Source: Xanthostigma xanthostigma (taxonomy: Eukaryota; Arthropoda; Insecta; Raphidioptera; Raphidiidae). From it: a stretch of DNA of 64,000 nt. This document shows positions 38,263 to 60,183 of this stretch, in pieces. The notes under the pieces were generated by a model. That model saw nothing but the letters and a program-made list of their open reading frames with translations, was not told the DNA's origin and made no database searches. The stretch covers positions 53,353,108 to 53,417,107 of the forward strand of contig OY754467.1 in assembly GCA_963575645.1 (NCBI GenBank), written 5' to 3'. Position 1 is the first letter of the stretch, and every line of letters starts with the position of its first letter. Both the position numbers and the translations under genes were made by a program.

Positions 38263-38770
38263 GATGGAACAAATAATTGTTGAAATTTGAACATCGAAAC
38301 ACCTCCTATGTATATATTTCAAAAAAACTAGATCTGTTATGAATTATGACAACAATATCACCGAAAAGTACATAAATTATTTAGGTCTATTGTTTTCCCA
38401 AAACTAATAGTTTGGTATAACAAAGCATGTAACGATATTAATTTAATAATATTAATATCACGGTAAAATCTAGTTTGCTTTATATTCGTGTACAGTAATA
38501 GGTACACGAAATTGTGTTCAAACGCGTTTATGGTTAAGCAGAGACCGGTATTAAGTACGTATTAGCGCCGCGTCTAATTGAACTTATATTTTTGTAATTA
38601 ATATTATGTTGTCCGCCAATAGATGGCTACTCATTAATTTCCTTTTTAATTAATATTTTTATTAAAAATGATTAGCGGTCGTACCTACTGCGGTTCGACA
38701 TTTATTGGTGTCAAGCAACAGTGCGCATAAAAATTTGTCTTTCAGTGACCACCCTGTTGGCTCAGTGGCT

Positions 38771-38805
38771 TGCTAGTTTACGATCGTGTTCCGTCTATTC
38801 TAGTA
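38771..38805 (+). promoter_or_regulatory. LTR hairpin 1
   Basis: Stem TGCTAG / CTAGTA (6 pairs, one G-U) closes a 23-nt loop containing the self-complementary octamer ACGATCGT. Confidence 0.6.
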
Positions 38806-38847
38806 TGGCCTATCTAGTCTAACGGGGAAAGCTTTGAATAGCCCTTT

Positions 38848-38888
38848 AAGTGCTGGTTTACGATCGTGTTCCGTCTATTCCAGCATTT
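38848..38888 (+). promoter_or_regulatory. LTR hairpin 2
   Basis: Stem AAGTGCTGG / CCAGCATTT (9 pairs, one G-U) closes exactly the same 23-nt loop as hairpin 1. One A-U pair of hairpin 1 is a G-C pair here, and its G-U is a G-C. Confidence 0.7.
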
Positions 38889-38923
38889 TGTGGATTCATT
38901 CTCAGCTCGCTTGCCGAAGATCT

Positions 38924-38972
38924 GGAAACTATTGAAGTACGATCGTGTTGTCGTCTGCTCCGATAAGTTTCC
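38924..38972 (+). promoter_or_regulatory. LTR hairpin 3
   Basis: Outer stem GGAAACT / AGTTTCC plus inner ATTG / CGAT with one bulged A closes a 26-nt loop that again contains ACGATCGT. Confidence 0.65.
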
Positions 38973-39010
38973 CGGTGTCTTCTAATAGCACACTGCTTGA
39001 CCATCGCGAG

Positions 39011-39049
39011 GGTTCTGGATCATGATCGGGATTTCGTCTGTTCCAGACC
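39011..39049 (+). promoter_or_regulatory. LTR hairpin 4
   Basis: Stem GGTTCTGGA / TCCAGACC with one bulge closes a 22-nt loop related to the others (GATCG..TTTCGTCTGT). Its palindrome is TCATGA rather than ACGATCGT. Confidence 0.6.
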
Positions 39050-39492
39050 TTAGCGTAAATCGACCCACGACCGCAACGACCGTATTAAATTCAATGACCG
39101 TGCCGAGGATATAAATAATGACCTAATAAAAAAACACAACGTAGGAATGACCTAGAGATTCGAGTTAAATATAATTAGAGTCCCGCCCGAGTTTAGGATC
39201 CTTCAGACCGCTAGACTCATTAACTTTATTATTATGTGAAATTGAATGTGACCGTACAAATAATATCGTTATTTGCACTGATGGGAGTATTTAATTAAAA
39301 GTACTCTGTTGACCGATGAAAGTAAATTAGCCATTTGAACCTATTGTTTATTTCCATTATATATTTTGTGTATTGTTATAATTTGTCATTTGAGTTTTAT
39401 ATATTACATTATACGTGTTAAAACTTTAACGCTCGAACCTGTTTATTTAAAAACCCAACCAACCCCCACAAGAAAAATAATAACGTAACAAC

Positions 39493-39510
39493 TGGTGCCG
39501 TGACCAGGAT
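39493..39510 (+). promoter_or_regulatory. Primer binding site of element 1 (tRNA-His type)
   Basis: TGGTGCCGTGACCAGGAT, two bases after the LTR, is complementary to a 3' end reading ATCCTGGTCACGGCACCA, which fits eukaryotic tRNA-His. The tRNA identity is from memory of tRNA-His 3' ends. Confidence 0.75.
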
Positions 39511-39574
39511 TCTTATAAAACAAAGATCCGATTGACCTATTGTTGTAACAATACCGACCGTACACGGGTTCAAA

Positions 39575-40561
39575 ATGGAAGAAGAGCAGATTGATGAATC
39601 CACACAGGCAACGTCAACACCGCCTGAGCCAATCCGACCCGACCCAAATGTTGAACAAAATATTGACATTGCTGACCGACCTAATGATTTTTCAGCACGC
39701 TTGCGTGCATTGAACTTAGACCTAACGCCCGCTGTCCGTTCCTATAAAGCTATTCCCGTGTACAAATGGGGAATAAAGTTTACCGGGGACGAACGAAATA
39801 GTTTAGAAACGTTTTTGGAGGATGTAGAAGACCGACGCCGTGACAACAGTATAACAACAACCGACTTGTTGCACTCAGCTTCCGGACTGTTTGGAGGCTC
39901 AGCCTTACAAGTCTACCGCTATGCTCGAGATAAGTTACGTACATGGGATGAGCTAGTGCAAACGTTACGCAAATCTTTTAGAGATCCAGACTATGACCAT
40001 TTATTAAAAATAGAAATTAATAAACGAAAACAGGGACCTACTGAACCATTTTCTGTTTATGTCGCAAAAATGTTTAGTCTATACAAACGTATGGAGCGTC
40101 CGCCTGCATATAGTGAACAAATGCAGACAATTGAACTTAATTGTCTTCCCGATTATCAGGAACAAATAAGCGTGAACGAACCCCGAACCATTGGCGAACT
40201 TGAAAACTTAGTTTCTCGACTTGAACGAGGACGACTGAGAGCACGCCGTCAATCGCGCCCCCCGAACCAACTGTTGGAGCCCGACTTATCAAAAGTATCC
40301 AACATGACCGGAACACAAAATGATAATATACGGGTGATCCAAAAGTCACGAACTAGCCCTGTTTATGAAGTAAACACTACGAACGATAAACCGGCATTCC
40401 GCTACAAGTGTTGGAACTGTCGCAAACAAGGACATGCATACAGAAACTGCCCTAACCCGCCGAATCACCAATTCTGCAATACGTGTGAAATGAACGGAAC
40501 TACGACGACAAATTGTCCTCGCTGTCGACAGACACAGGGAAACGACCGACAGGCACGTTAA
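39575..40561 (+). CDS. gag: Gag polyprotein of element 1
   Basis: 328 residues. Residues 60-220 form a Ty3/gypsy-type capsid domain, and residues 217-230 are Arg-rich. A CCHC zinc knuckle follows (C279, C282, H287, C292; spacing X2-X4-X4). A second cysteine set (C301, C304, C314, C317) resembles a C4 ribbon. Gag forms the particle that packages RNA. The ATG is the first in frame after the primer site. The frame overlaps pol, and the slippery heptamer lies 16 bp before the stop. The frame is uninterrupted, so the capsid gene is presumably still under use. Confidence 0.9.
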   Translation: MEEEQIDESTQATSTPPEPIRPDPNVEQNIDIADRPNDFSARLRALNLDLTPAVRSYKAIPVYKWGIKFTGDERNSLETFLEDVEDRRRDNSITTTDLLHSASGLFGGSALQVYRYARDKLRTWDELVQTLRKSFRDPDYDHLLKIEINKRKQGPTEPFSVYVAKMFSLYKRMERPPAYSEQMQTIELNCLPDYQEQISVNEPRTIGELENLVSRLERGRLRARRQSRPPNQLLEPDLSKVSNMTGTQNDNIRVIQKSRTSPVYEVNTTNDKPAFRYKCWNCRKQGHAYRNCPNPPNHQFCNTCEMNGTTTTNCPRCRQTQGNDRQAR

Positions 40562-40582
40562 CAGGTCGTAAACGTCGCCTGT
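40537..40582 (+). promoter_or_regulatory. -1 ribosomal frameshift signal of element 1
   Basis: GGGAAAC at 40537-40543 is in the gag frame as G GGA AAC, the X XXY YYZ form. After a 5-nt spacer a stem-loop spans 40549-40582: ACAGGC+ACGTT pairs with AACGT+GCCTGT (11 pairs, one bulged C, 11-nt loop). Shifting -1 enters the pol frame directly. Confidence 0.9.
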
Positions 40583-42357
40583 ATTCCTCTAGACCGACCT
40601 TAAAACAATCTGCACCGACCGCTGAACAGAACGTGATTTCAAAAATGCCAGGAGATGCCCGACCGTATTTATTTGTGACCATTGGAGGAAGAGAGTTACC
40701 CGGATTATTAGATTCAGGAGCTAGCCGAACGATGACCGGACCGAGAGGAAGATTGCTACTCGCTGAACGGGGATACCGCCCTCGACCTTCAGTAAACAAA
40801 AAAATTCAGACCGCTGATGGAACCACGTACTCTGTTGAAGAAGAAATGAGTGTGTTAATGACCGTATCTGACCGAACACGCCGTATCACTGTCCTATTAG
40901 TGCCCGAATTACCGCAAGATTTAATTCTCGGCATTGATTTTTGGACTGCTATGCAGATAGTGCCCGATATGAGTAGAGGAACTTGGACATTTTCTCCGAA
41001 CACTGACCATGTAACGACCATAACGACCATCACGCCCAAAGAAAAGTTGAGGAACAAAAGGTACAGAAAAAGAAAAGACAACGCTAGCAATGATGCGTTG
41101 TGTGAACCTCTGAACGATACTGTACCGATTGATGTTATCACTTTTCCGGAACAATTACATGACCGCTGGTATAATAAAATGACCGAAAATATTGAAGCCA
41201 ACCCTGATGATTATCCACGATGGAAAATTCACGACAACAAGATTTATAAAAAAATCACCGACCGACACCACTTTCCAAATCCTGCGTATGAATGGAAATT
41301 AGTGGTGCCCAATAAATTACGACCCGAAATACTCAAACAGTTTCACGATGAACCGACCGCCGGACACTTAGGTGTCGCCAAAACATACGACCGAATAAAA
41401 CGAAGTTATTATTGGCCGAAAATGATCGTTGACGTAGCACGATACGTACATGACTGCAGTGTATGTCAACAAACAAAACCTGATAATAAAGCGCCCCAAG
41501 GAAAAATGGGACAAGACCGGACCGCAGATGTGCCCTGGAGAACGATCAGTGCTGACCTGATGGGCCCTTTTCCTCGATCGAAAAGGGGTCGTAGATACCT
41601 ACTGGTTGTTCAGGACACGCATACAAAATTTGTCTTGTTATTCCCGCTTCGGGCCGCCACGTCAAAATTAGTCGCTCAACACTTGAACGACTCAGTTTTT
41701 ATGATATATGGTGTTCCCGAGTTTCTAATCTCTGATAATGGAGCCGAATTTACCGGGAAAAATGTACGCGAATTATTAGCAAAATTTGGGGTAAAGGCGT
41801 TATTAAATGCCCGTCGACATTCGCAAGCGAATCCTACCGAGCGCACGAACTTGACTATAAACAATATGCTACGCGCATATGTGGCCGACAAACACCACGA
41901 GTGGGACGCTAACATAGCCGAGCTTGGCTTTGCGTTGCGAACTGCGCGAAGCGATGTCACCAACTACACCCCTGCTTATCTGAATTATGGGCGCGAACTA
42001 AAAATTCACGCCAGTGAATATCAAAACGTCGCTCCCGATACAACAAACGACCACGTCTCGGAACTGATACATCTTTTCACTGAAGTAAAAGATCGCTTGC
42101 AAAAGGCTCATCAAGACAGCGCCGTCCGATATAATTTGCGCCGCCGGACAAATGAGTACAATATAGGAGACCGAGTTCTGAAAAGGAAATACGCACTATC
42201 CAATGCTACGCAGGGATATGCCGCCAAATTAGCTCCCCGGTACGAGGGCCCGTTTTCCATCAAGAGGAAAATTTCGCCAATAATTTATGAGCTAGCAAAA
42301 ATGGACGGTAAAAGCATTGGAATATGGCATATTAGTGATTTAAAAACGTTTAACTAA
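40540..42357 (+). CDS. pol: Pol of element 1: protease-integrase, no reverse transcriptase or RNase H
   Basis: Entered by -1 frameshift; an in-frame ATG exists at 40513 but is probably not the start. Numbered from that ATG (614 aa): retropepsin at about 50-160 with active site D67-S68-G69 and the ILG motif at 138-140, then a basic linker (176-190). Next comes the integrase N-terminal region (205-330) with zinc ligands H278, H285, C315 and C318. The catalytic core has D348, D408 and E443, exactly D-x34-E between the last two. A GPF motif lies at 579-581. The normal ~550-residue RT/RNase H block between protease and integrase is absent with no stop or frameshift. Protease and integrase look functional. 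The element can process Gag and integrate, but not copy RNA. Confidence 0.9.
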   Translation, partial: KRPTGTLTGRKRRLYSSRPTLKQSAPTAEQNVISKMPGDARPYLFVTIGGRELPGLLDSGASRTMTGPRGRLLLAERGYRPRPSVNKKIQTADGTTYSVEEEMSVLMTVSDRTRRITVLLVPELPQDLILGIDFWTAMQIVPDMSRGTWTFSPNTDHVTTITTITPKEKLRNKRYRKRKDNASNDALCEPLNDTVPIDVITFPEQLHDRWYNKMTENIEANPDDYPRWKIHDNKIYKKITDRHHFPNPAYEWKLVVPNKLRPEILKQFHDEPTAGHLGVAKTYDRIKRSYYWPKMIVDVARYVHDCSVCQQTKPDNKAPQGKMGQDRTADVPWRTISADLMGPFPRSKRGRRYLLVVQDTHTKFVLLFPLRAATSKLVAQHLNDSVFMIYGVPEFLISDNGAEFTGKNVRELLAKFGVKALLNARRHSQANPTERTNLTINNMLRAYVADKHHEWDANIAELGFALRTARSDVTNYTPAYLNYGRELKIHASEYQNVAPDTTNDHVSELIHLFTEVKDRLQKAHQDSAVRYNLRRRTNEYNIGDRVLKRKYALSNATQGYAAKLAPRYEGPFSIKRKISPIIYELAKMDGKSIGIWHISDLKTFN

Positions 42358-42419
42358 TCACACGAACAACTAAAATGAATTACGTAATCTAAGATCAAAA
42401 TTATTTATGTAACATCGAC

Positions 42420-42455
42420 TATAAAAAGACCGGCGATAACAGCAGTCTCATTCAG
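42420..42455 (+). promoter_or_regulatory. Candidate internal promoter for ORF3
   Basis: TATAAAAAG at 42420-42428 is followed 30 bp later by TCATTCAGTT (42449-42458), an arthropod-like initiator. The ATG of ORF3 is at 42462. The same TCTCATTCAG could instead serve as a splice acceptor for a subgenomic RNA. Confidence 0.5.
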
Positions 42456-42461
42456 TTGAAA

Positions 42462-43001
42462 ATGGACTTCCTAGATATCGACGACGTACCGACCTTCGAA
42501 GATGAACAGCGCACACCCGATACGCCGCCGACACTATCGCCGTGCCCTTCTATCAACTCCTTCAACAAAATACCGCAGGAACGCTTCCCCGAAACGCCGC
42601 CAACGCGAGGAATAGAGGATCGTTCACCCCTGGAGCTGCTACCGTGGAGGTTGATCCAATTGACCCTCTCACCCCCTAAGAGGCGTCGACGTGTGATCCC
42701 GCCGCCGGTTCCAGAGGCTTTACTGAGGCCACCGGCGACTATAACGCCAGCCGCCAAATCGACACCACCACCACCAATAAAACCTCCAGCACCTTTAAAA
42801 CCAGCTATAACGCCAGTGTCAACGCCGCCGACGTCGCGACCGTATGTGCCGCCGCTGCCCACCTGGACTCCAGCCTTGAGAAGACGATGTAGGAGAAAGA
42901 CCGTACTGCCCGATGGACGCGTGATTCGTTTCACGAAGGCCGCCAACGGACAAATCCGTATGGGACGCGTTGTCCCCAGTGTGTGTAAAGTAGTGGACTA
43001 A
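42462..43001 (+). CDS. ORF3 of element 1: Pro- and Arg-rich accessory protein, unrecognised
   Basis: 179 residues from the first ATG (two codons upstream the frame has TTG-AAA). The N-terminus is acidic, the middle (about 70-150) is strongly proline-rich, and there is a basic patch PPKRRRR near residue 75. A compact basic C-terminus begins LRRRCRRKTVL. No signal peptide, membrane span or zinc motif is present, so it is not an envelope protein although it occupies the env position. GC content is higher than its surroundings. Basic patches suggest nuclear entry or nucleic-acid binding; this is inference. No family is recognised. Confidence 0.7.
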   Translation: MDFLDIDDVPTFEDEQRTPDTPPTLSPCPSINSFNKIPQERFPETPPTRGIEDRSPLELLPWRLIQLTLSPPKRRRRVIPPPVPEALLRPPATITPAAKSTPPPPIKPPAPLKPAITPVSTPPTSRPYVPPLPTWTPALRRRCRRKTVLPDGRVIRFTKAANGQIRMGRVVPSVCKVVD

Positions 43002-43142
43002 GGTTTTGTGCTGAGTAAGCTAAAGTGTTTGGTATGTGAACTTTTGTTTTTTTTTTGATAAATAGTGATTATTTCCTAATGCAATATTAACATTTAGAAC
43101 ATTGACCGCATTTTGAAATATCACGATACCTTTTTTTTGTTG

Positions 43143-43440
43143 TAGATTATTGAAATGTTGAATTTCAACTATGTTTGATATATTTTAATACAATATTCAT
43201 ATTAATGATTTTTGACCGTATTAAATAAATCACGACATAGTATTAATTTTTTTTAACTTTGCCCGTGTTGGATATATTCTAATACAATATTCATATTAAT
43301 GATTTTTGACCGTATTAAATATATCATAGCACAATATTCATGTTAATGATTTTTGACCGTATTAAATATATCATATTACACAATATTCAGTTTAATGATT
43401 TTTGACCGTGTTTATGATATTAGAATACAATATTGACCTT
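43143..43440 (+). repeat. Tandem repeats in the 3' region of element 1
   Basis: Units of about 55-60 bp containing ATTTTTGACCGTATTAAATA and ACAATATTCATATTAATG recur four to five times before the purine tract. Copies decay outwards. Confidence 0.7.
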
Positions 43441-43802
43441 TTTGAAATTTGACTGTATTGATGAATACAGAAGTTTTGAACTTTCATTATTTTGCCCGTA
43501 TTTGAAAATTATTAATGCAGACCTTTTGTAACTATTAATAATTTGGACCATATTTAGAGATAAGATAAATGTTTGAACGTTGATAGTAGTATTAAGGACA
43601 TTGAACTGTGATTATTTACGTTTATTTAAAACGTTGAAGTGAAATATTTTGTTTTGTATTTTTGATATTTAGTCATATGAACGATAGTGAATAATATTGA
43701 AAATTGATCAAATGATTGCCCTAAGTACAATTTTTGTTTTACATTTAAGTTTATGACCATTGGTGCACATAACTATGACCTTATAATCGCGTATTTTTAC
43801 AC

Positions 43803-43814
43803 GGGCCGGAGGAG
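43803..43814 (+). promoter_or_regulatory. Polypurine tract of element 1
   Basis: GGGCCGGAGGAG directly abuts the 3' LTR start TGTAAC and would prime plus-strand synthesis. Two cytosines interrupt it. Confidence 0.6.
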
Positions 43815-44877
43815 TGTAACGATATTAATTTAATAATATTAATATCACGGTAAAATCTAGTTTGCTTTATATTCGTGTACAGTAATAGGTACACGAAATT
43901 GTGTTCAAACGCGTTTATGGTTAAGCAGAGACCGGTATTAAGTACGTATTAGCGCCGCGTCTAATTGAACTTATATTTTTGTAATTAATATTATGTTGTC
44001 CGCCAATAGATGGCTACTCATTAATTTCCTTTTTAATTAATATTTTTATTAAAAATGATTAGCGGTCGTACCTACTGCGGTTCGACATTTATTGGTGTCA
44101 AGCAACAGTGCGCATAAAAATTTGTCTTTCAGTGACCACCCTGTTGGCTCAGTGGCTTGCTAGTTTACGATCGTGTTCCGTCTATTCTAGTATGGCCTAT
44201 CTAGTCTAACGGGGAAAGCTTTGAATAGCCCTTTAAGTGCTGGTTTACGATCGTGTTCCGTCTATTCCAGCATTTTGTGGATTCATTCTCAGCTCGCTTG
44301 CCGAAGATCTGGAAACTATTGAAGTACGATCGTGTTGTCGTCTGCTCCGATAAGTTTCCCGGTGTCTTCTAATAGCACACTGCTTGACCATCGCGAGGGT
44401 TCTGGATCATGATCGGGATTTCGTCTGTTCCAGACCTTAGCGTAAATCGACCCACGACCGCAACGACCGTATTAAATTCAATGACCGTGCCGAGGATATA
44501 AATAATGACCTAATAAAAAAACACAACGTAGGAATGACCTAGAGATTCGAGTTAAATATAATTAGAGTCCCGCCCGAGTTTAGGATCCTTCAGACCGCTA
44601 GACTCATTAACTTTATTATTATGTGAAATTGAATGTGACCGTACAAATAATATCGTTATTTGCACTGATGGGAGTATTTAATTAAAAGTACTCTGTTGAC
44701 CGATGAAAGTAAATTAGCCATTTGAACCTATTGTTTATTTCCATTATATATTTTGTGTATTGTTATAATTTGTCATTTGAGTTTTATATATTACATTATA
44801 CGTGTTAAAACTTTAACGCTCGAACCTGTTTATTTAAAAACCCAACCAACCCCCACAAGAAAAATAATAACGTAACA
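43815..44877 (+). repeat. 3' LTR of element 1
   Basis: 1063 bp, identical by eye to the 5' LTR, including all four hairpins (offset 5387 bp). Confidence 0.95.
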
Positions 44878-44881
44878 AGCA

Positions 44882-53345: not shown

Positions 53346-53928
53346 TGTAGCGTACGGTGTTATGTATGCCTTTTCCAAAATTAATTTTTATTTTATCGGT
53401 CAATTAGCATCTCCGGAAAACAAATGGCTTATGTTAATGGCTCTTTTTCGTAATCGTGAAAGGTAAAATAACTTGATCTATACTAATAATAAAATAATTC
53501 GCTTACCTTAGAATAATTGTATTTTTATTAATTTTATATGATATAAATTTTGGTTTTATTTTATAATTTTATGATTTCACAATTTTAATATAAATTTTAA
53601 TTTTTTGCAATTTTAATATAAACTGGATTTCGTAATTTTAATTTCTGTTTGTTTTTTGTAGATTTTTAATAGATATATTATATACTTTGTTATTTGTAAT
53701 TTTAATATTTTTAACATAAATAAGTATTGGTTATTTTATTTTATTTATAAATTTTTAACTTAAATTCTAAATATATTTCAGTAACTTTTTATCAAAAAAA
53801 TCGATTTATATGACCTTATCATTAGGAATCTTTTTGTCGACTGACTGACCAGTACAATCCTACAAAATCAAACTTTCAAAAAAAACGAAAAGAATTACAG
53901 GGTGATCAAAATATAACGTTCCGTTACA
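53346..53928 (-). repeat. 3' LTR of element 2
   Basis: 583 bp, reading TGTAACGGAACG ... ACCGTACGCTACA on the minus strand. Very AT-rich interior. Confidence 0.95.
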
Positions 53929-53938
53929 TTATCCCCCA
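53929..53938 (-). promoter_or_regulatory. Polypurine tract of element 2
   Basis: On the minus strand TGGGGGATAA abuts the 3' LTR. It is purine-rich except for the Ts. Confidence 0.5.
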
Positions 53939-53989
53939 GGACGGAGAAGAAAAAAAAAATATTCAAAAAGATTTTTTTTTTTTTTTTTT

Positions 53990-56900
53990 TTATACTTCAA
54001 AATTAAACCCATTATTTACACTATTAATTTTTCGCAATTGTTCCAAGTGTACAGGACCCAACTCTTTATCAGATTGTAGTTTTTGCAAAATATAAGTATT
54101 GTTTCCCTTACAGACTTTTATGCGGTATGGACCTTTGTACAATAAATCGATTTTTTTGCATTTTCCATCAACTAATGACGATAGAGTATGCGTTTTAATA
54201 AGAACAAAATCGCCTGGCGATAAACTAACGCACTTATGGTTTCTTTGATGATAGGCTTGGCGATATCGAGCCTTTTGCTCAATACGATGTCTAACAAGAA
54301 CATTGTCGTCATCTGTATCGGCACTAACAGAAACAGGATACTCAATCAAACGCTGAAGATGGGGTCGGATTTTCTGACCGTACTGCAGTTCGTGTGGGAT
54401 GCACTGGGTGACTTCGTGGACGTTCTCGTTGATGTAACGTTGAATAGCAGGCAATTTACGCATCCATGTCGAATGTTGACCATTACAGTAGAGACGCAGC
54501 AACGTGCCAACCTGTCGATTACATCTTTCCACCGGATTGCACTTTGGCGTATAAGGAGAAGTGTACATAACTTTGACCCCCAGGTCTTCCAGAGGCCGCA
54601 CCCATTTCTGCGAACGAAAGGACGCCGCATTGTCAGTTAGGACCTTTTTAGGCCTTCCATGTTGTGGAAAATATAAATTTATCAATTTTTTGACCATGAC
54701 ATTGGTCGTTGCTCTACGCATCGGATATAACGAGACATATTTAGTAAACATATCTAGGACGACTAAAATGTGCAAACATCCACCTGTTGAACGGGTAAGG
54801 GGTCCTAAAACATCAACTGATAAAAGTTCGTTTTTATCATTTACAATGATAGGGTTCATGGGACCGTACAAGTATTGAGAAGGGTATTTAGCTGTTAAAC
54901 AGGGAATACACGAATTAACGAATTTTGCTATCTTTTCTCTCATATTCGTGAAATAGATATGTTTACGTAATAAGTGATACAGTTTATTAATTCCTGGATG
55001 TCCATAGCTTATATGCCAATATTTGATTGTTTCAAATTCCAATTGTTCGGGTAAGCAAAGTTGCCAGCTTTTACTCATAAAATTGTATTTAAATAGAATA
55101 TTTAGATATAAGCCGTAAGGACATTTCGGAGTTAAATTTACAATTTCATTTTCAGTCGTTTTCTGTGCAACAGAATTAATCACATTAGACCACTGATTAT
55201 CTTGTCTTTGCAATTTCTCAACATTTTTATATAATTTGCATAAATGAGTTGGTAATTTAATATATTTCAACTGGTAGAGATGGTAGATTAAATCTTTGGA
55301 CCCGTCAATGCAGTTTGTAGTGTCCAGACACCTGGTTAATGCATCAGCAGCCACATTTATTTTGCCGGGGCAGTATTCAACCGTTAGATCAAATTCTTGC
55401 GTTTTTAAACCCCAACGCAACAAACGGCTATTATAAATGCAACCCTTTTTTACAAGATGCGATAAAGCTTGACAGTCAGAGTAGGCAACCACTCTTTCAC
55501 CATACAAAAACATACGCCATTTTTCAAGGGCTTCTATCAACGCCAAAAATTCCTTTTCCACTATAGAATAATTAATTTGGGCGCCTTTTAATATTTTACT
55601 GAAAAATGCTAGGACATTTTTATTGTTATTATCAGTCACTTGAAATAAAATACCGGCAACTGCATAAAAAGAAGCGTCAATTTGTATATAATAGGGTTTA
55701 CCTATTATCGGGTGTTTTAATAAAGTCACAGAAACAAATTTTATTTTCAACTCCTGAAAAGCGAGTTCATTTTCAACTGACCAAGAAAAAGCTTTACTAT
55801 TAGATTCTTTTAGCAAATCGTATAATGGTTTAGCAGTTTTTGCAAACTGATAAATAAATCTCCTGTCAAAATTGCATAATCCAAGAAATTGTTGCACTTG
55901 TTTTTTATTTTTGGGAACTGGAAAGTGTTTTATAGCTAAGGTGCGTTCTGGGGAAGGCCGAATCCCCTCAGCAGAAATCAGGTATCCCAAAAACTGAACT
56001 TCTTTGGTGCAAAATGAGCTTTTGTTAAAATTAAGTACTATGCCACAATTTCTTAAGCGCTCAAACAACATCTTTAAATGCTTCAAATGATCGTCGTAAG
56101 ATTGTGATATGATTAGTATATCATCAACGTAACTAATCGCAAACGATTGTAACAAATCACCTAAAGCATTTTCTAAGCAAGAAATTAAGGCAGATGTGGC
56201 AGTAGATATTCCAAAAGGAACTCTCGTGAATACATACGATTTACCATTTACCACGAAACCAGTATACTTTTGGTGTTCTTTGAGAATTGGAATTTGCCAA
56301 AAAGACTTTGTCAAATCGAGAACGGATAGATATTTAATTTTTTCAAACCTTTGCAACAAATGTTCTATGTTTTCAGTGCGGTTGGTTTCTGAAATCAGAC
56401 GTTTATTTAACTCCCGCGCATCTAAGACTAAACGTATAGTGCCGTCCTTTTTAGGGACTACGTGTAAACTATTGAGATACGGAGTATTACATCGAGCTAT
56501 GACACCCTGAGAAAGCATATTTTTAATTTCCGTGTTTACGGCTTCGCGTAATTTATAAGGAATACCATATAAACGACCCCTGTAGACAGAGACATCATTA
56601 AGCTCAAGTTTGTGAGTGTAACAATTCGCGCAACCAGGTGAATCATTGAAAATATCGCGATAATTATACAATAGTTCGGCTAGTGGTTCGTTATTTGTAC
56701 AATTTTTATATTGAGCTAATTTATTCAAAATTTCCCGGAAAGATAATTGACTACCGGACTCGTTTCCACCAGACAAGGCACGAATGATGTGATTTTGTTG
56801 TACACAGACGGCTTTGTTATCACTTCCCAATTCCATATCACCTCTATGAAGTAGAGTTGATGCAGAGCGTGCCTCACCACTTTGGTATTTAGCAACGTCA

Positions 56901-57838
56901 TAGCATAAAGTCGGCGTAAGGTTTAGTCTGACAGAATCAGTACTAGAATTTTTTGTCATATGTGACTTAGCTAGATTATTAACTTGAATATTACAAGTAA
57001 TATCAGCATTGTAGTCATCGTCGTAAATGTAGTCTATTTCACAAGAAGTGAAGACATCACTAAATTGAGAGTCGAGAGTCAGTAAGTTCTGACTATCAGC
57101 TTTAAGAATTGATGTGGAATCGGTATAGTGGTTTTTATTATTCTTAATGAATTCGCGGCTCATATCATTGTCTCGCCTTAATTTAGGAGAATTTGAGTCA
57201 CGTGTAATCATCCTTACAGGCTCCTGGCTCTGACATGGGACCGAATCACAAAATGAAACCTCTGTTACAATATCATTTATACGAAATTTAACAACACAAT
57301 CAATGTAACTAATTTTTGCGGAATGCTCCCTAAGAAAGTCAGACCCCAATATAACATCAGTTCTCAAACTGTTCACAACAAACATTTTACAATTAACTTC
57401 GATATTGTTAATTTTTATATTTACTATGATCTGTTTTCGTATCATTGATGTTCTGAAGCCAATCGCACCGCTGACTCCACACTTAGATACGGGTATCCAA
57501 TTAATTTTATTATCAGAATTTAAATAGTTAAAGAGTGTTTCTGAAATAGCCGTTATTTCAGAACCAGTATCTACTAACGCCTCCGTAGAACAGTTAGCAA
57601 TGCTTATTGAAATTTTAGGTGATTTGTTAATCAGAAAATGATCGTTTTCAATATTAGGAATTAAAGTATAAATTGGTAAAATATTGTTTTGATTAGAATC
57701 TAAGTCACTATCATCCTCTGATTTACATTCAGGAACAATTTCAATACAAAAATCGTTTTCGTTTTCTGACCAATCAGGATTTGAGCACGATTGATTATCT
57801 CCTTCTTCAAGATCGTCGAAGAAGGAGTTTACCCGTTT
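53990..57838 (-). CDS. pol: Pol of element 2: protease, reverse transcriptase, RNase H, integrase
   Basis: Entered by -1 frameshift at 57835-57841 and open to TAA. The protease motif ALVDTGSE lies around 57560-57585, upstream of the first in-frame ATG at 57445. Numbered from that ATG (1151 aa): RT at about 285-480 with D377 and YVDD at 439-442, RNase H at 585-705 with D590, E630, D657 and D701. The integrase zinc ligands are H811, H816, C846 and C849, the catalytic residues are D878, D938 and E973 (D-x34-E), and GPY lies at 1105-1107. All key residues are present. It copies the RNA and integrates the cDNA in the nucleus. Confidence 0.95.
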   Translation of the reverse strand, partial: KRVNSFFDDLEEGDNQSCSNPDWSENENDFCIEIVPECKSEDDSDLDSNQNNILPIYTLIPNIENDHFLINKSPKISISIANCSTEALVDTGSEITAISETLFNYLNSDNKINWIPVSKCGVSGAIGFRTSMIRKQIIVNIKINNIEVNCKMFVVNSLRTDVILGSDFLREHSAKISYIDCVVKFRINDIVTEVSFCDSVPCQSQEPVRMITRDSNSPKLRRDNDMSREFIKNNKNHYTDSTSILKADSQNLLTLDSQFSDVFTSCEIDYIYDDDYNADITCNIQVNNLAKSHMTKNSSTDSVRLNLTPTLCYDVAKYQSGEARSASTLLHRGDMELGSDNKAVCVQQNHIIRALSGGNESGSQLSFREILNKLAQYKNCTNNEPLAELLYNYRDIFNDSPGCANCYTHKLELNDVSVYRGRLYGIPYKLREAVNTEIKNMLSQGVIARCNTPYLNSLHVVPKKDGTIRLVLDARELNKRLISETNRTENIEHLLQRFEKIKYLSVLDLTKSFWQIPILKEHQKYTGFVVNGKSYVFTRVPFGISTATSALISCLENALGDLLQSFAISYVDDILIISQSYDDHLKHLKMLFERLRNCGIVLNFNKSSFCTKEVQFLGYLISAEGIRPSPERTLAIKHFPVPKNKKQVQQFLGLCNFDRRFIYQFAKTAKPLYDLLKESNSKAFSWSVENELAFQELKIKFVSVTLLKHPIIGKPYYIQIDASFYAVAGILFQVTDNNNKNVLAFFSKILKGAQINYSIVEKEFLALIEALEKWRMFLYGERVVAYSDCQALSHLVKKGCIYNSRLLRWGLKTQEFDLTVEYCPGKINVAADALTRCLDTTNCIDGSKDLIYHLYQLKYIKLPTHLCKLYKNVEKLQRQDNQWSNVINSVAQKTTENEIVNLTPKCPYGLYLNILFKYNFMSKSWQLCLPEQLEFETIKYWHISYGHPGINKLYHLLRKHIYFTNMREKIAKFVNSCIPCLTAKYPSQYLYGPMNPIIVNDKNELLSVDVLGPLTRSTGGCLHILVVLDMFTKYVSLYPMRRATTNVMVKKLINLYFPQHGRPKKVLTDNAASFRSQKWVRPLEDLGVKVMYTSPYTPKCNPVERCNRQVGTLLRLYCNGQHSTWMRKLPAIQRYINENVHEVTQCIPHELQYGQKIRPHLQRLIEYPVSVSADTDDDNVLVRHRIEQKARYRQAYHQRNHKCVSLSPGDFVLIKTHTLSSLVDGKCKKIDLLYKGPYRIKVCKGNNTYILQKLQSDKELGPVHLEQLRKINSVNNGFNFEV

Positions 57839-57841
57839 TTT
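57799..57841 (-). promoter_or_regulatory. -1 ribosomal frameshift signal of element 2
   Basis: On the minus strand AAAAAAC (57841-57835) sits in gag frame as A AAA AAC, one codon before the gag stop. After a 7-nt spacer comes a perfect 10-bp stem CTCCTTCTTC / GAAGAAGGAG with a 9-nt loop (57827-57799). Confidence 0.9.
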
Positions 57842-59478
57842 GAACTGGCATCAAAATTGGTTTCAACGCCTTCGGGAAACTGAGAAGGAAAATCATAATT
57901 AACTTCCAAAGAATTAATCCTAGTTTTTGGAATAGCACCTTGGTTCACAAATCTATTATTAGATTGCCGATATGTAGACGTGTTAACGAAATTAGAAGTT
58001 TTATTTTTATTGTCATAACTGGTTTGTGCAGATTTGACAGGGTCGGGCTTTGCATTTTGTTCAAAATTATCGCGCGAATCTTTAGCGTTGAATGAATTAT
58101 TCGAATTTGGACGATATGCATTAAATGGTCTATAACTTTCAAGTTCATCCAATTCTTTTAAAAGATTATAAATTTCAACAAAAGAACCAATTGTAGCAGT
58201 CAACAGAACGCGTTGTACATGTACGGGAAAGTGTCTTCTAATAAGTGAAATGATTTCAACATCTTGTAATGGTGGATTTAGTTGCTTAGCTTTCCTATAA
58301 ATGGTTATAAAATAATCTGCCATAGACTGTTTCCTTTGGTTATTATAGGTATCCGAATATAGTTGCATTCTTATTTTATGCTGCTTATTGAGGCCCCAGT
58401 ATTCTGATAGAAAATTATTTTTGAATTCAGTGTAGTTAGTAAAAAACATTTGAAAACCCCCAAACCACCTTAGAGCTTTATCAGACAACGACTGTTCTAC
58501 AATTATGAGTTGATATGCCTCCGGTATATTTTGACATCTAAAATAATTTTCTAATTTTTGTAAGTATTCAATTGGATCCTCATCATTTTCACCAGAAAAG
58601 AGTGGTAAATTAATTTTTATTGGACAATTAAAATTATAATTGAGCGGGAAATTGTTCGAATTGTTAAACTGATTTTGATTCAAACCGTGATTATAGGAAT
58701 CATATTTAAGTTTATTTAAATTTTGATTGTATCCATTCGTAAAGGCTTGATATTGAGGTAGATTTTGATAATTACTAGTATTAGTGACTGGTTGTTGAAT
58801 ATAATTACTGTGACAAATCGGACGTGATAAATTCATAAAATTTACATTTGTGTTCGCTCCATAATAATTATTTGAATTATTTCCAAGGTCGCAATGTGTT
58901 CTTAACATATTGATTGTATTATCAACACGATTTGGAACTTGTTCAAAATTGGTTGCAACTGGTGCGTTAATTGTGTTACTTGATACTATATTGTCAACTG
59001 GATTAATCGAATTTACCTGATTAGCAGAATAATCATTTCTTTGAAAATTATTAAAATTTGTACGAGCAATGAAATTAGAATCAGAATATGTTACCTGAGA
59101 TTGCATTACATTTGTATTATTAGAATACTCCCTCAAATTATCCATAACAGGTATTTCCACATTGTATGTACCATGCTCATCCATTAGAAATGTGCTGCGT
59201 GTTGATACACCCCGTTCTTCCATTCTATTTCCAAATTGGGAATTATTGACATCATTTCGTTGATTAATTTGTGAAGCTGTTGTATTACCTGCAATGCTTG
59301 GGAAAACCACTGGATTATCTGAATTTACAATAGGTAATGAATGTGTTGATAATTCGGGTGAACTATTAGAACCCCGTGACGCTAAGTCTTCATTTGGCAA
59401 ACTTGAGTTATCGGTCATGTTCCGATTCCTCGTTGTGCTGCGAGTAACTCTGGTAGGTGTACGACTAGTCATTATCAA
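57829..59478 (-). CDS. gag: Gag of element 2, Asn-rich, no zinc knuckle
   Basis: 549 residues. Residues 1-285 are low complexity, very rich in Asn and Ser. Residues 286-450 carry a retrotransposon gag domain (LPLFSGENDEDP, ALRWFGGF, MADYFITIYRKAKQL). The C-terminus is again Asn/Ser-rich and contains no CCHC motif, unlike element 1. The first ATG is followed two codons later by a second. RNA binding would rely on basic and disordered segments, which is inference. The frame is intact and joins pol through the shift site. Confidence 0.9.
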   Translation of the reverse strand: MIMTSRTPTRVTRSTTRNRNMTDNSSLPNEDLASRGSNSSPELSTHSLPIVNSDNPVVFPSIAGNTTASQINQRNDVNNSQFGNRMEERGVSTRSTFLMDEHGTYNVEIPVMDNLREYSNNTNVMQSQVTYSDSNFIARTNFNNFQRNDYSANQVNSINPVDNIVSSNTINAPVATNFEQVPNRVDNTINMLRTHCDLGNNSNNYYGANTNVNFMNLSRPICHSNYIQQPVTNTSNYQNLPQYQAFTNGYNQNLNKLKYDSYNHGLNQNQFNNSNNFPLNYNFNCPIKINLPLFSGENDEDPIEYLQKLENYFRCQNIPEAYQLIIVEQSLSDKALRWFGGFQMFFTNYTEFKNNFLSEYWGLNKQHKIRMQLYSDTYNNQRKQSMADYFITIYRKAKQLNPPLQDVEIISLIRRHFPVHVQRVLLTATIGSFVEIYNLLKELDELESYRPFNAYRPNSNNSFNAKDSRDNFEQNAKPDPVKSAQTSYDNKNKTSNFVNTSTYRQSNNRFVNQGAIPKTRINSLEVNYDFPSQFPEGVETNFDASSKNG

Positions 59479-59578
59479 AACTAATTTTAATTGAATATAT
59501 AATAACTAAGATTTTTTTTTTTTTTTTTTTTTTTATATATAAAATAACAGTATGCCAAATTTGTTACCACATGCTAAT

Positions 59579-59596
59579 ATCCCGGTTGAGCCCCCA
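59579..59596 (-). promoter_or_regulatory. Primer binding site of element 2 (tRNA-Pro type)
   Basis: On the minus strand TGGGGGCTCAACCGGGAT, four bases inside the 5' LTR, complements a 3' end ATCCCGGTTGAGCCCCCA, fitting insect tRNA-Pro. Identity is from memory of tRNA-Pro sequences. Confidence 0.75.
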
Positions 59597-59600
59597 TTTA

Positions 59601-60183
59601 TGTAGCGTACGGTGTTATGTATGCCTTTTCCAAAATTAATTTTTATTTTATCGGTCAATTAGCATCTCCGGAAAACAAATGGCTTATGTTAATGGCTCTT
59701 TTTCGTAATCGTGAAAGGTAAAATAACTTGATCTATACTAATAATAAAATAATTCGCTTACCTTAGAATAATTGTATTTTTATTAATTTTATATGATATA
59801 AATTTTGGTTTTATTTTATAATTTTATGATTTCACAATTTTAATATAAATTTTAATTTTTTGCAATTTTAATATAAACTGGATTTCGTAATTTTAATTTC
59901 TGTTTGTTTTTTGTAGATTTTTAATAGATATATTATATACTTTGTTATTTGTAATTTTAATATTTTTAACATAAATAAGTATTGGTTATTTTATTTTATT
60001 TATAAATTTTTAACTTAAATTCTAAATATATTTCAGTAACTTTTTATCAAAAAAATCGATTTATATGACCTTATCATTAGGAATCTTTTTGTCGACTGAC
60101 TGACCAGTACAATCCTACAAAATCAAACTTTCAAAAAAAACGAAAAGAATTACAGGGTGATCAAAATATAACGTTCCGTTACA
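59601..60183 (-). repeat. 5' LTR of element 2
   Basis: 583 bp, identical by eye to 53346-53928. A GGTCAGTCAGTCG initiator-like run lies about 75 bp from its start on the minus strand. Confidence 0.95.

What the first reader, a model, noticed from the sequence alone, without database searches (positions are those of the whole stretch)
38428..44877. Recently inserted LTR retroelement that encodes Gag, protease and integrase but no reverse transcriptase
Protease (DSG, ILG) is joined through a ~50-residue basic linker to a full HHCC/DDE integrase in one open frame. The RT/RNase H block is cleanly absent. All frames are intact and the two 1063-bp LTRs look identical, with a 4-bp target duplication, so the element moved recently despite lacking RT. 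Most non-autonomous LTR elements (TRIM, LARD, TR-GAG types) lose integrase too. Keeping capsid, protease and integrase while borrowing RT is a distinct parasitic strategy.
Basis: partly seen in the sequence, partly recalled or inferred. Interest (0 to 1): 0.92.

Follow-up and report, generated by a model that had tools for sequence, protein, structure and literature searches.

The report
RT-less Gypsy retrotransposon family, recently jumping
A jumping gene that lacks the copying enzyme its life cycle needs has nevertheless spread to dozens of intact copies in this genome, apparently by borrowing the enzyme from a rare relative with which it keeps exchanging DNA.

Summary
Window 38428-44877 is a Ty3/Gypsy element with identical 1063-bp LTRs, a 4-bp target duplication, PBS, PPT, gag, a PR-IN frame and a third ORF, and no RT in any frame. 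It is not a one-off: the host assembly (623 Mb) holds at least 59 full-length matches to the PR-IN frame, 58 without a stop. All 25 RT-less loci tested lack RT; of 20 with both LTRs compared, 13 pairs are identical and 5 differ once. An RT-containing sister exists: one intact copy (L009), one broken (L051/L016). L009 resembles the RT-less copies everywhere except one ~500-bp block (PR + linker): 89 private bases in 508, against 13 in 3808 elsewhere. Synonymous difference is 0.37-0.40 in PR, 0.02 in IN. So the RT-less cassette is old, in a backbone shared with the RT+ form, as expected if both RNAs are co-packaged and recombine. A second family (C) has lost RT and PR, probably independently, and also moved recently. 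Closest precedent: mouse IAP 1Δ1 with its proposed master copy. A new variant of a known kind.

The parts
38424..38427 (.). target-site duplication AGCA, left copy
38428..39490 (+). 5' LTR, TGTAAC...GTAACA
   Evidence: identical to 3' LTR over 1063 bp
39493..39512 (+). primer binding site TGGTGCCGTGACCAGGATTC; resembles the 3' end of animal tRNA-His (recalled, not tested)
   Evidence: the match to tRNA-His could not be tested (searches unanswered)
39536..40561 (+). ORF1 gag (first ATG 39575); Retrotrans_gag, weak CCHC
40537..40543 (+). GGGAAAC slippery heptamer, read G GGA AAC in the gag frame
   Evidence: heptamer also present in family C
40549..40582 (+). hairpin 5 nt downstream of the slippery site
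   Evidence: -17.4 kcal/mol, z only -1.0; stem kept in C and L009 sequences
40489..42357 (+). ORF2: PR-IN frame, 622 aa, no RT
40603..41110 (+). the RT-less cassette: PR plus linker, the only block in which RT-less copies and the RT+ copy differ consistently
   Evidence: 89 of 508 private bases in L009
40657..40956 (+). retropepsin domain (DSGA, ADG flap, ILG)
41059..41100 (+). remnant of the RNase H C-terminus marking the RT/RNase H deletion
41305..42351 (+). integrase: H2C2 finger, DD34E core, SH3-like C-terminal domain
42462..43001 (+). ORF3, proline-rich, no Pfam match, present in families A, B and C
43172..43455 (+). AT-rich tandem repeats (~94 bp unit) in the 3' untranslated region
43799..43814 (+). 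polypurine tract ACACGGGCCGGAGGAG
43815..44877 (+). 3' LTR
44878..44881 (.). target-site duplication AGCA, right copy

Best explanation
The element is one copy of a Ty3/Gypsy family (A) that exists in two forms on one shared backbone. The common form has a short cassette (PR + linker, RT and RNase H deleted) and encodes Gag, PR and IN. The rare form has a long cassette (PR-RT-RNase H). Shown: copy numbers, recent insertions, the old divergence confined to the cassette, and extensive recombination outside it. Inferred: both RNAs are packaged together in particles; RT from the rare form (or a close relative) copies the RT-less RNA from its own PBS and PPT; IN made by either form inserts it; copy-choice template switching during reverse transcription keeps LTR, gag, IN and ORF3 common to both. 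The RT-less cassette is an old, long-maintained allele, not a recent deletion, and far outnumbers the RT+ form.
For: 59 full-length PR-IN matches, 58 without stops, in one genome. No RT in 25 of 25 RT-less loci tested. Of 20 RT-less copies with both LTRs compared (of 25 examined), 13 have identical pairs, 5 differ by one change, 1 (L035, truncated 5' LTR) is identical over the remaining 890 bp and 1 (L018) has 16 mismatches; 19 of 20 have a 4-bp TSD. L009 (RT+) has identical LTRs and a TSD, and its single frame holds gag, PR, RT, RNase H and IN. L009 private bases: 9/1112 in UTR+gag, 89/508 in the cassette, 3/1247 in IN, 1/1449 in ORF3+3'UTR; RT-less medians are 2, 1, 1, 1 (Fisher p 3e-71). 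pS of PR RT-less vs L009 is 0.37-0.40, of IN 0.020. The second, broken RT+ copy agrees with L009 at 65 of 75 diagnostic cassette sites but at only 10 of 28 gag sites. Rm = 33 among 22 RT-less copies. A PBS variant is shared by L009 and 4 RT-less copies.
Against: Only one intact and one broken RT+ A copy were found, so the cassette/RT linkage rests on n = 2, and the broken copy carries the RT-less state at 8 of the 75 cassette sites. L009 has slightly more private bases in UTR+gag (9) than any RT-less copy (maximum 8). Family counts are lower bounds, because the search scores only its best candidates (71 of 2328; 94 of 2046). Co-packaging and trans-complementation are inferred from recombination, not observed; Rm can be inflated by recurrent mutation or alignment error. 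PR on the RT-less branch shows only weak constraint (9 synonymous, 14 nonsynonymous changes; p 0.09 against neutrality).
Confidence: 0.82

Rival explanations
1. Recent one-off deletion: RT was lost from one autonomous element shortly before the family amplified, and PR differs only by chance or fast evolution.
For: Outside the cassette the RT+ copy is on average 97-100% identical to the RT-less copies.
Against: PR block pS of 0.37-0.40 against about 0.02 in gag core and IN; dN/dS there is 0.24-0.27, so this is not simply fast protein change; the broken RT+ copy carries mostly the L009-type PR (65 of 75 sites).
Confidence: 0.06
2. The helper is not family A but a more distant Gypsy element (for example the B family), and L009 is only a rare by-product recombinant with no role.
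For: B has 6 listed RT+ copies (91-92% RT identity) against one for A. Family C moved recently with no known RT+ relative above 77% IN identity among the candidates scored, so a heterologous helper probably works there; C shares PBS core, PPT core and LTR ends with B.
Against: A and B are near saturation at synonymous sites in gag (pS about 0.7), so there is no sign of exchange, while A RT+ and A RT-less share sequence throughout the backbone. LTR ends and PPT of A differ from those of B. LTR bodies of B and C show no BLAST similarity.
Confidence: 0.25
3. Mutualistic split genome: the RT-less form supplies most Gag and IN, the RT+ form mainly RT, and both depend on each other.
For: At least 59 full-length RT-less matches against one intact A RT+ copy found. 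L009 reads gag and pol as one frame and so may make no separate Gag.
Against: The broken A RT+ copy and 4 of 6 B RT+ copies keep gag and pol in separate frames, so fusion is not a rule; L009 could be an accident. No dependence of RT+ on RT-less is shown.
Confidence: 0.15
4. Assembly artefact: RT collapsed or missing in repeats.
For: Young repeats are prone to misassembly (general knowledge).
Against: 59 loci on 12 contigs, 4-bp TSDs in 19 of 20 copies checked, and open in-frame junctions.
Confidence: 0.01

Closest known systems
Mouse IAP type 1Δ1 (PMC6466679, PMC7411935: passages read)
   Same: Deleted, non-autonomous LTR element with a kept open pol-derived frame; needs Gag and Pol in trans; accounts for most new IAP insertions; a rare full-length master copy was proposed.
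   Different: Its 1.9-kb deletion removes part of gag and pol and makes a Gag-Pol fusion. Here gag and PR are intact, only RT + RNase H are removed, and the deletion allele is old. This is a Gypsy element, not an endogenous retrovirus group.
Wheat RLG_Sabrina_SA 'semi-autonomous' Gypsy (PMC9744471: passages read)
   Same: RT lost, Gag and protease kept, thought to be mobilised by a separate autonomous family (RLG_Wilma).
   Different: Sabrina lacks RT and IN and shares little sequence with its proposed helper; here IN is kept and the backbone is exchanged with the RT+ form.
RLG_Quinta with RLG_Cereba in wheat (PMC11302176: abstract and passages read)
   Same: Long-lived non-autonomous/autonomous pair sharing LTR ends and PBS.
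TR-GAG, TRIM, LARD, BARE-2 (recalled)
   Same: Non-autonomous LTR elements with PBS and PPT.
   Different: They lose IN, or all coding capacity, or gag translation; none is defined by Gag-PR-IN without RT.
Ty3 (solved structure 7q5b)
   Same: Integrase homologous over residues 237-604 (E 4.3e-33).
   Different: Ty3 is autonomous with RT between PR and IN (recalled).

Membership tests
Ty3/Gypsy LTR retrotransposon | LTRs with TG...CA ends, short TSD, PBS and PPT | tested here: met
Ty3/Gypsy LTR retrotransposon | PR-RT-RNaseH-IN gene order | tested here: not met
   RT/RNase H absent in this form; met in RT+ relatives L009 and L010
Ty3/Gypsy LTR retrotransposon | Gypsy-type integrase | tested here: met
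   Integrase_H2C2, rve, SH3_Tf2-1; Ty3 integrase best PDB match
Non-autonomous (trans-mobilised) LTR retrotransposon | lacks an essential enzyme but inserted recently | tested here: met
Non-autonomous (trans-mobilised) LTR retrotransposon | related autonomous element in the same genome with matching PBS, PPT and LTR ends | tested here: met
   L009: LTR 99.5% identical, same PPT, PBS variant shared with 4 RT-less copies; that L009 is active is not shown
Non-autonomous (trans-mobilised) LTR retrotransposon | RT supplied in trans in particles | not testable with these tools
   needs an experiment
TR-GAG / LARD / TRIM (definitions recalled) | no pol genes | tested here: not met
   intact PR-IN frame
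IAP 1Δ1 type | gag-pol fusion frame from a deletion within gag and pol | tested here: not met
   gag and PR are intact; the deletion is confined to RT/RNase H

The most novel reading that the evidence does not exclude
The two forms make up a stable, long-lived two-segment retroelement. Reverse transcriptase is confined to a rare genome, all other functions are common property kept uniform by copy-choice recombination, and the RT-less state arose at least twice (families A and C). In C it progressed to Gag + IN (and ORF3) only.
Probability: 0.3. Interest if true: 0.8.

Novelty: new variant of a known kind. Interest (0 to 1): 0.62.

Why it matters
It is a natural case in which the loss of RT alone can be separated from the loss of Gag, PR and IN, with the RT+ form, the old deletion allele and the recombining backbone all in one genome. 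It makes testable whether LTR-element enzymes act in cis or as public goods, how cheater and helper genomes coexist, and whether recombination through co-packaging rather than selection keeps genes intact in non-autonomous elements. In practice, annotation that classifies elements by RT would miss or misfile the 59 full-length copies found here (inference).

Tried and rejected
Gag-pol fusion as the hallmark of RT+ forms (a division of labour by frame) looked attractive from L009 and L010 but was dropped: L041-L044 and the broken A copy keep separate frames, and only L010 and L045 of the six B copies are fused.

RT hidden in another frame or strand: rejected. The other Gypsy element of the window as the obvious partner: its RT is 35% identical and its PBS differs; not favoured. 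Close relatives of PR-IN in IMG/VR: one stretch matched a pattern, none confirmed. dN/dS as proof that the RT-less form keeps IN under selection: dropped, because IN is exchanged with the RT+ form; the non-exchanging PR block gives only weak constraint on the RT-less branch. The within-family PR ratio is inflated by the degraded copy L018 (one search gives the count with and without it); one search also dropped, as out of frame, L009 (gag), L020 (IN), and L021 and L040 (ORF3). Frameshift hairpin: plausible, but z is only -1.0. Solo-LTR counts: not obtained (one search scored 40 of 189 candidates). In one search the IN segment was found by its motif in only one sequence, so that comparison was not made there; IN figures come. 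On recheck, two LTR pairs that one search had shown as identical were corrected: L021 differs at its first base, and L035 has a truncated 5' LTR.

Not answered: a search for RT+ copies with the RT-less PR type, for host tRNA-His genes, and an ORF3 search (tried once).
Full report
What is there. The window element (38428-44877) has two LTRs identical over 1063 bp, a 4-bp duplication (AGCA), a PBS two bases after the 5' LTR and a purine tract directly before the 3' LTR. ORF1 is gag (Pfam Retrotrans_gag 3.7e-05). ORF2, open over 622 codons, carries a retropepsin and a complete Gypsy-type integrase. ORF3 is proline-rich and matches nothing in Pfam. The best solved relative of the integrase is Ty3. 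No RT or RNase H was listed in six frames at a limit of E 10, whereas the same library finds RT strongly in a second Gypsy element in the window. A GGGAAAC heptamer stands in the gag frame, five bases before a hairpin, and would explain access to PR-IN by a -1 frameshift; this is an inference, and the hairpin is not exceptional against shuffles (z -1.0).

It is a family. A search of the window's own assembly (623 Mb, 28 contigs) with the 622-aa frame gave 77 matches, 59 of them covering residues 1-622 and 58 of those without a stop (71 of 2328 candidates scored, so these are lower bounds). I read 24 further RT-less loci: 20 of the 58 other full-length copies (L021-L040) plus 4 imperfect ones (L017-L020). 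tblastn with the RT of the RT+ relative found nothing in these 24 or in the window element. Of the 25, two gave a single LTR hit (L017, L039) and three had their 5' LTR partly outside the fetched stretch (L022, L023, L027). In the other 20, 13 LTR pairs are identical, 5 differ by one change, L035 has a truncated 5' LTR that is identical over the 890 bp that remain, and L018 has 16 mismatches; 19 of 20 have a 4-bp TSD, L035 being the exception. The RT-less elements therefore inserted recently and repeatedly.

The RT+ sister. One locus (L009, C8:31676500-31686499) has the same LTRs (99.5%), a TSD, and identical LTRs of its own, with RT and RNase H between PR and IN in a 1382-aa frame. A search with its RT (450 aa) listed no other copy of that type. 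The next matches are six copies at 91-92% (family B), then 75% and lower (94 of 2046 candidates scored). A broken second copy of the A type, which that search did not list, was found in L051/L016: its RT fragments are 94-98% identical in DNA to L009 and are interrupted by other DNA.

Where the two forms differ. Aligned with 23 RT-less copies, L009 behaves as an ordinary family member except from about 40603 to 41110, that is PR and the linker. Private bases of L009 are 9 of 1112 (5'UTR+gag), 89 of 508 (PR+linker), 3 of 1247 (IN) and 1 of 1449 (ORF3+3'UTR). For RT-less copies the medians are 2, 1, 1, 1 and the maxima 8, 4, 4, 12. Synonymous difference between the forms is 0.38-0.40 in PR and 0.020 in IN, and 0.018-0.026 in the gag core for four RT-less copies. 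Family B (L010) differs in PR from the A RT-less form by 0.53-0.56 and from L009 by 0.70, and in gag by about 0.7 from both, so the RT-less PR split from the RT+ PR after the A-B split, yet long before the present copies. The broken RT+ copy carries the L009 state at 65 of 75 diagnostic sites of the block (RT-less state at 8, neither at 2), but in the part of gag it retains it is mixed (13 RT-less, 10 L009, 5 neither). Among 22 RT-less copies (L018 left out) the minimum number of recombinations is 33 over 108 sites; recurrent mutation could inflate this. A PBS variant with two extra bases is shared by L009 and four RT-less copies. The simplest reading is two old alleles of one cassette, with free exchange on both sides.

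The junction. In RT+ forms the RNase H region ends ...YRKGKDNAGPDALSRALYEPQ or close to it. Some RT-less copies keep that end almost intact (L048), while the window copy has RYRKRKDNASNDALCEPL.

A second RT-less family. Family C (five intact copies L011-L015 plus one partial match, part of which is L050) has a gag frame and a 539-aa frame with integrase alone: both PR and RT are gone, apparently by two deletions with the segment between them kept. Four of the five have 4-bp TSDs, and the fifth (L014) has a purine tract before its 5' LTR, as in a tandem array. LTR pairs differ by 0-2 changes (one copy also by a gap) over 1038-1113 bp. Among the 80 candidates scored no known RT+ copy exceeds 77% integrase identity to C; one 78% fragment (C1:38659974) was not read, so its RT status is unknown. 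A and C are close to saturation at synonymous sites in gag (0.77), the left breakpoints of the RT deletions differ, and the A RT-less PR is nearest to A RT+. RT was therefore probably lost independently in A and C (inference).

How it probably works. RT-less RNA enters particles with RT+ RNA, is copied by RT made from the RT+ RNA, and is inserted by integrase from either. Template switching between the two RNAs explains the uniform backbone. I consider this well supported for A, with the helper either A-type RT+ or, less likely, B. IN need not be kept in cis: L019 (about 90 residues around the zinc finger deleted in frame, 541-aa frame) has identical LTRs and a TSD, and L052 lacks the IN core but lies between two LTRs that both match the window LTR almost perfectly. 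PR on the RT-less branch has 9 synonymous and 14 nonsynonymous changes (RT+ branch 17 and 10, 9 unpolarised). Constraint there is weak and not significant alone (p 0.09), and the difference between branches is not significant either (p 0.16).

What is known. Mouse IAP 1Δ1 elements lack part of gag and pol, need proteins in trans, make most new IAP insertions and may depend on one full-length master copy (passages read in PMC6466679, and PMC7411935). Wheat RLG_Sabrina_SA keeps Gag-Pro without RT and IN (passages read in PMC9744471), and RLG_Quinta keeps Gag (abstract and passages read in PMC11302176); both are thought to depend on separate autonomous families. In open-access full text I saw no description of a Gag-PR-IN element family lacking only RT/RNase H (searches, of which I saw the listings only, capped at 25 of 252 and 15 of 51, apart from the papers just named and passages of PMC5738225). 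Subscription papers and repeat databases were not searched, so this is not a claim of absence.

Counts are lower bounds. The tRNA identity of the primer is recalled, not tested.

Noticed in passing
53346-60183 (minus strand): A second recently inserted Gypsy element, with RT; LTRs 583/583 identical, TSD CGCT, different PBS (TGGGGGCTCAACCGGGATATT).
   Followed up: partly
42462-43001: ORF3, a proline-rich protein without Pfam match, is present in families A, B and C (dN/dS about 0.3 within A); function unknown.
   Followed up: partly
39575 region; L022, L023, L027, L052: Some A copies have a gag longer by about 120-140 residues at the N-terminus (480 aa; 457 aa in L023, which has a stop), like B and C; the window copy and L009 lack this part.
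   Followed up: partly
L052 (C10:27138282-27142408): RT-less copy that has also lost the integrase core in frame, between LTRs that both match the window LTR almost perfectly.
   Followed up: partly
39493-39512 and L009, L023, L026, L027, L029, L031, L035, L037, L038: The PBS varies inside the presumed primer match (small insertions and substitutions), unexpected if the full 18-20 nt are copied from the tRNA.
   Followed up: no
L009; L010, L045: Three RT+ copies read gag and pol in one frame: L009 by one set of base changes, L010 and L045 by another that they share; the other RT+ copies read keep separate frames.
   Followed up: partly
41734-41841: Integrase catalytic spacing is DD34E; the same NARRHSQANPTERTN context is seen in families A, B and C.
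   Followed up: no
L014 (C2:20544000-20551000): Family C copy whose 5' LTR is preceded by a purine tract, suggesting a tandem LTR-internal-LTR array.
   Followed up: no
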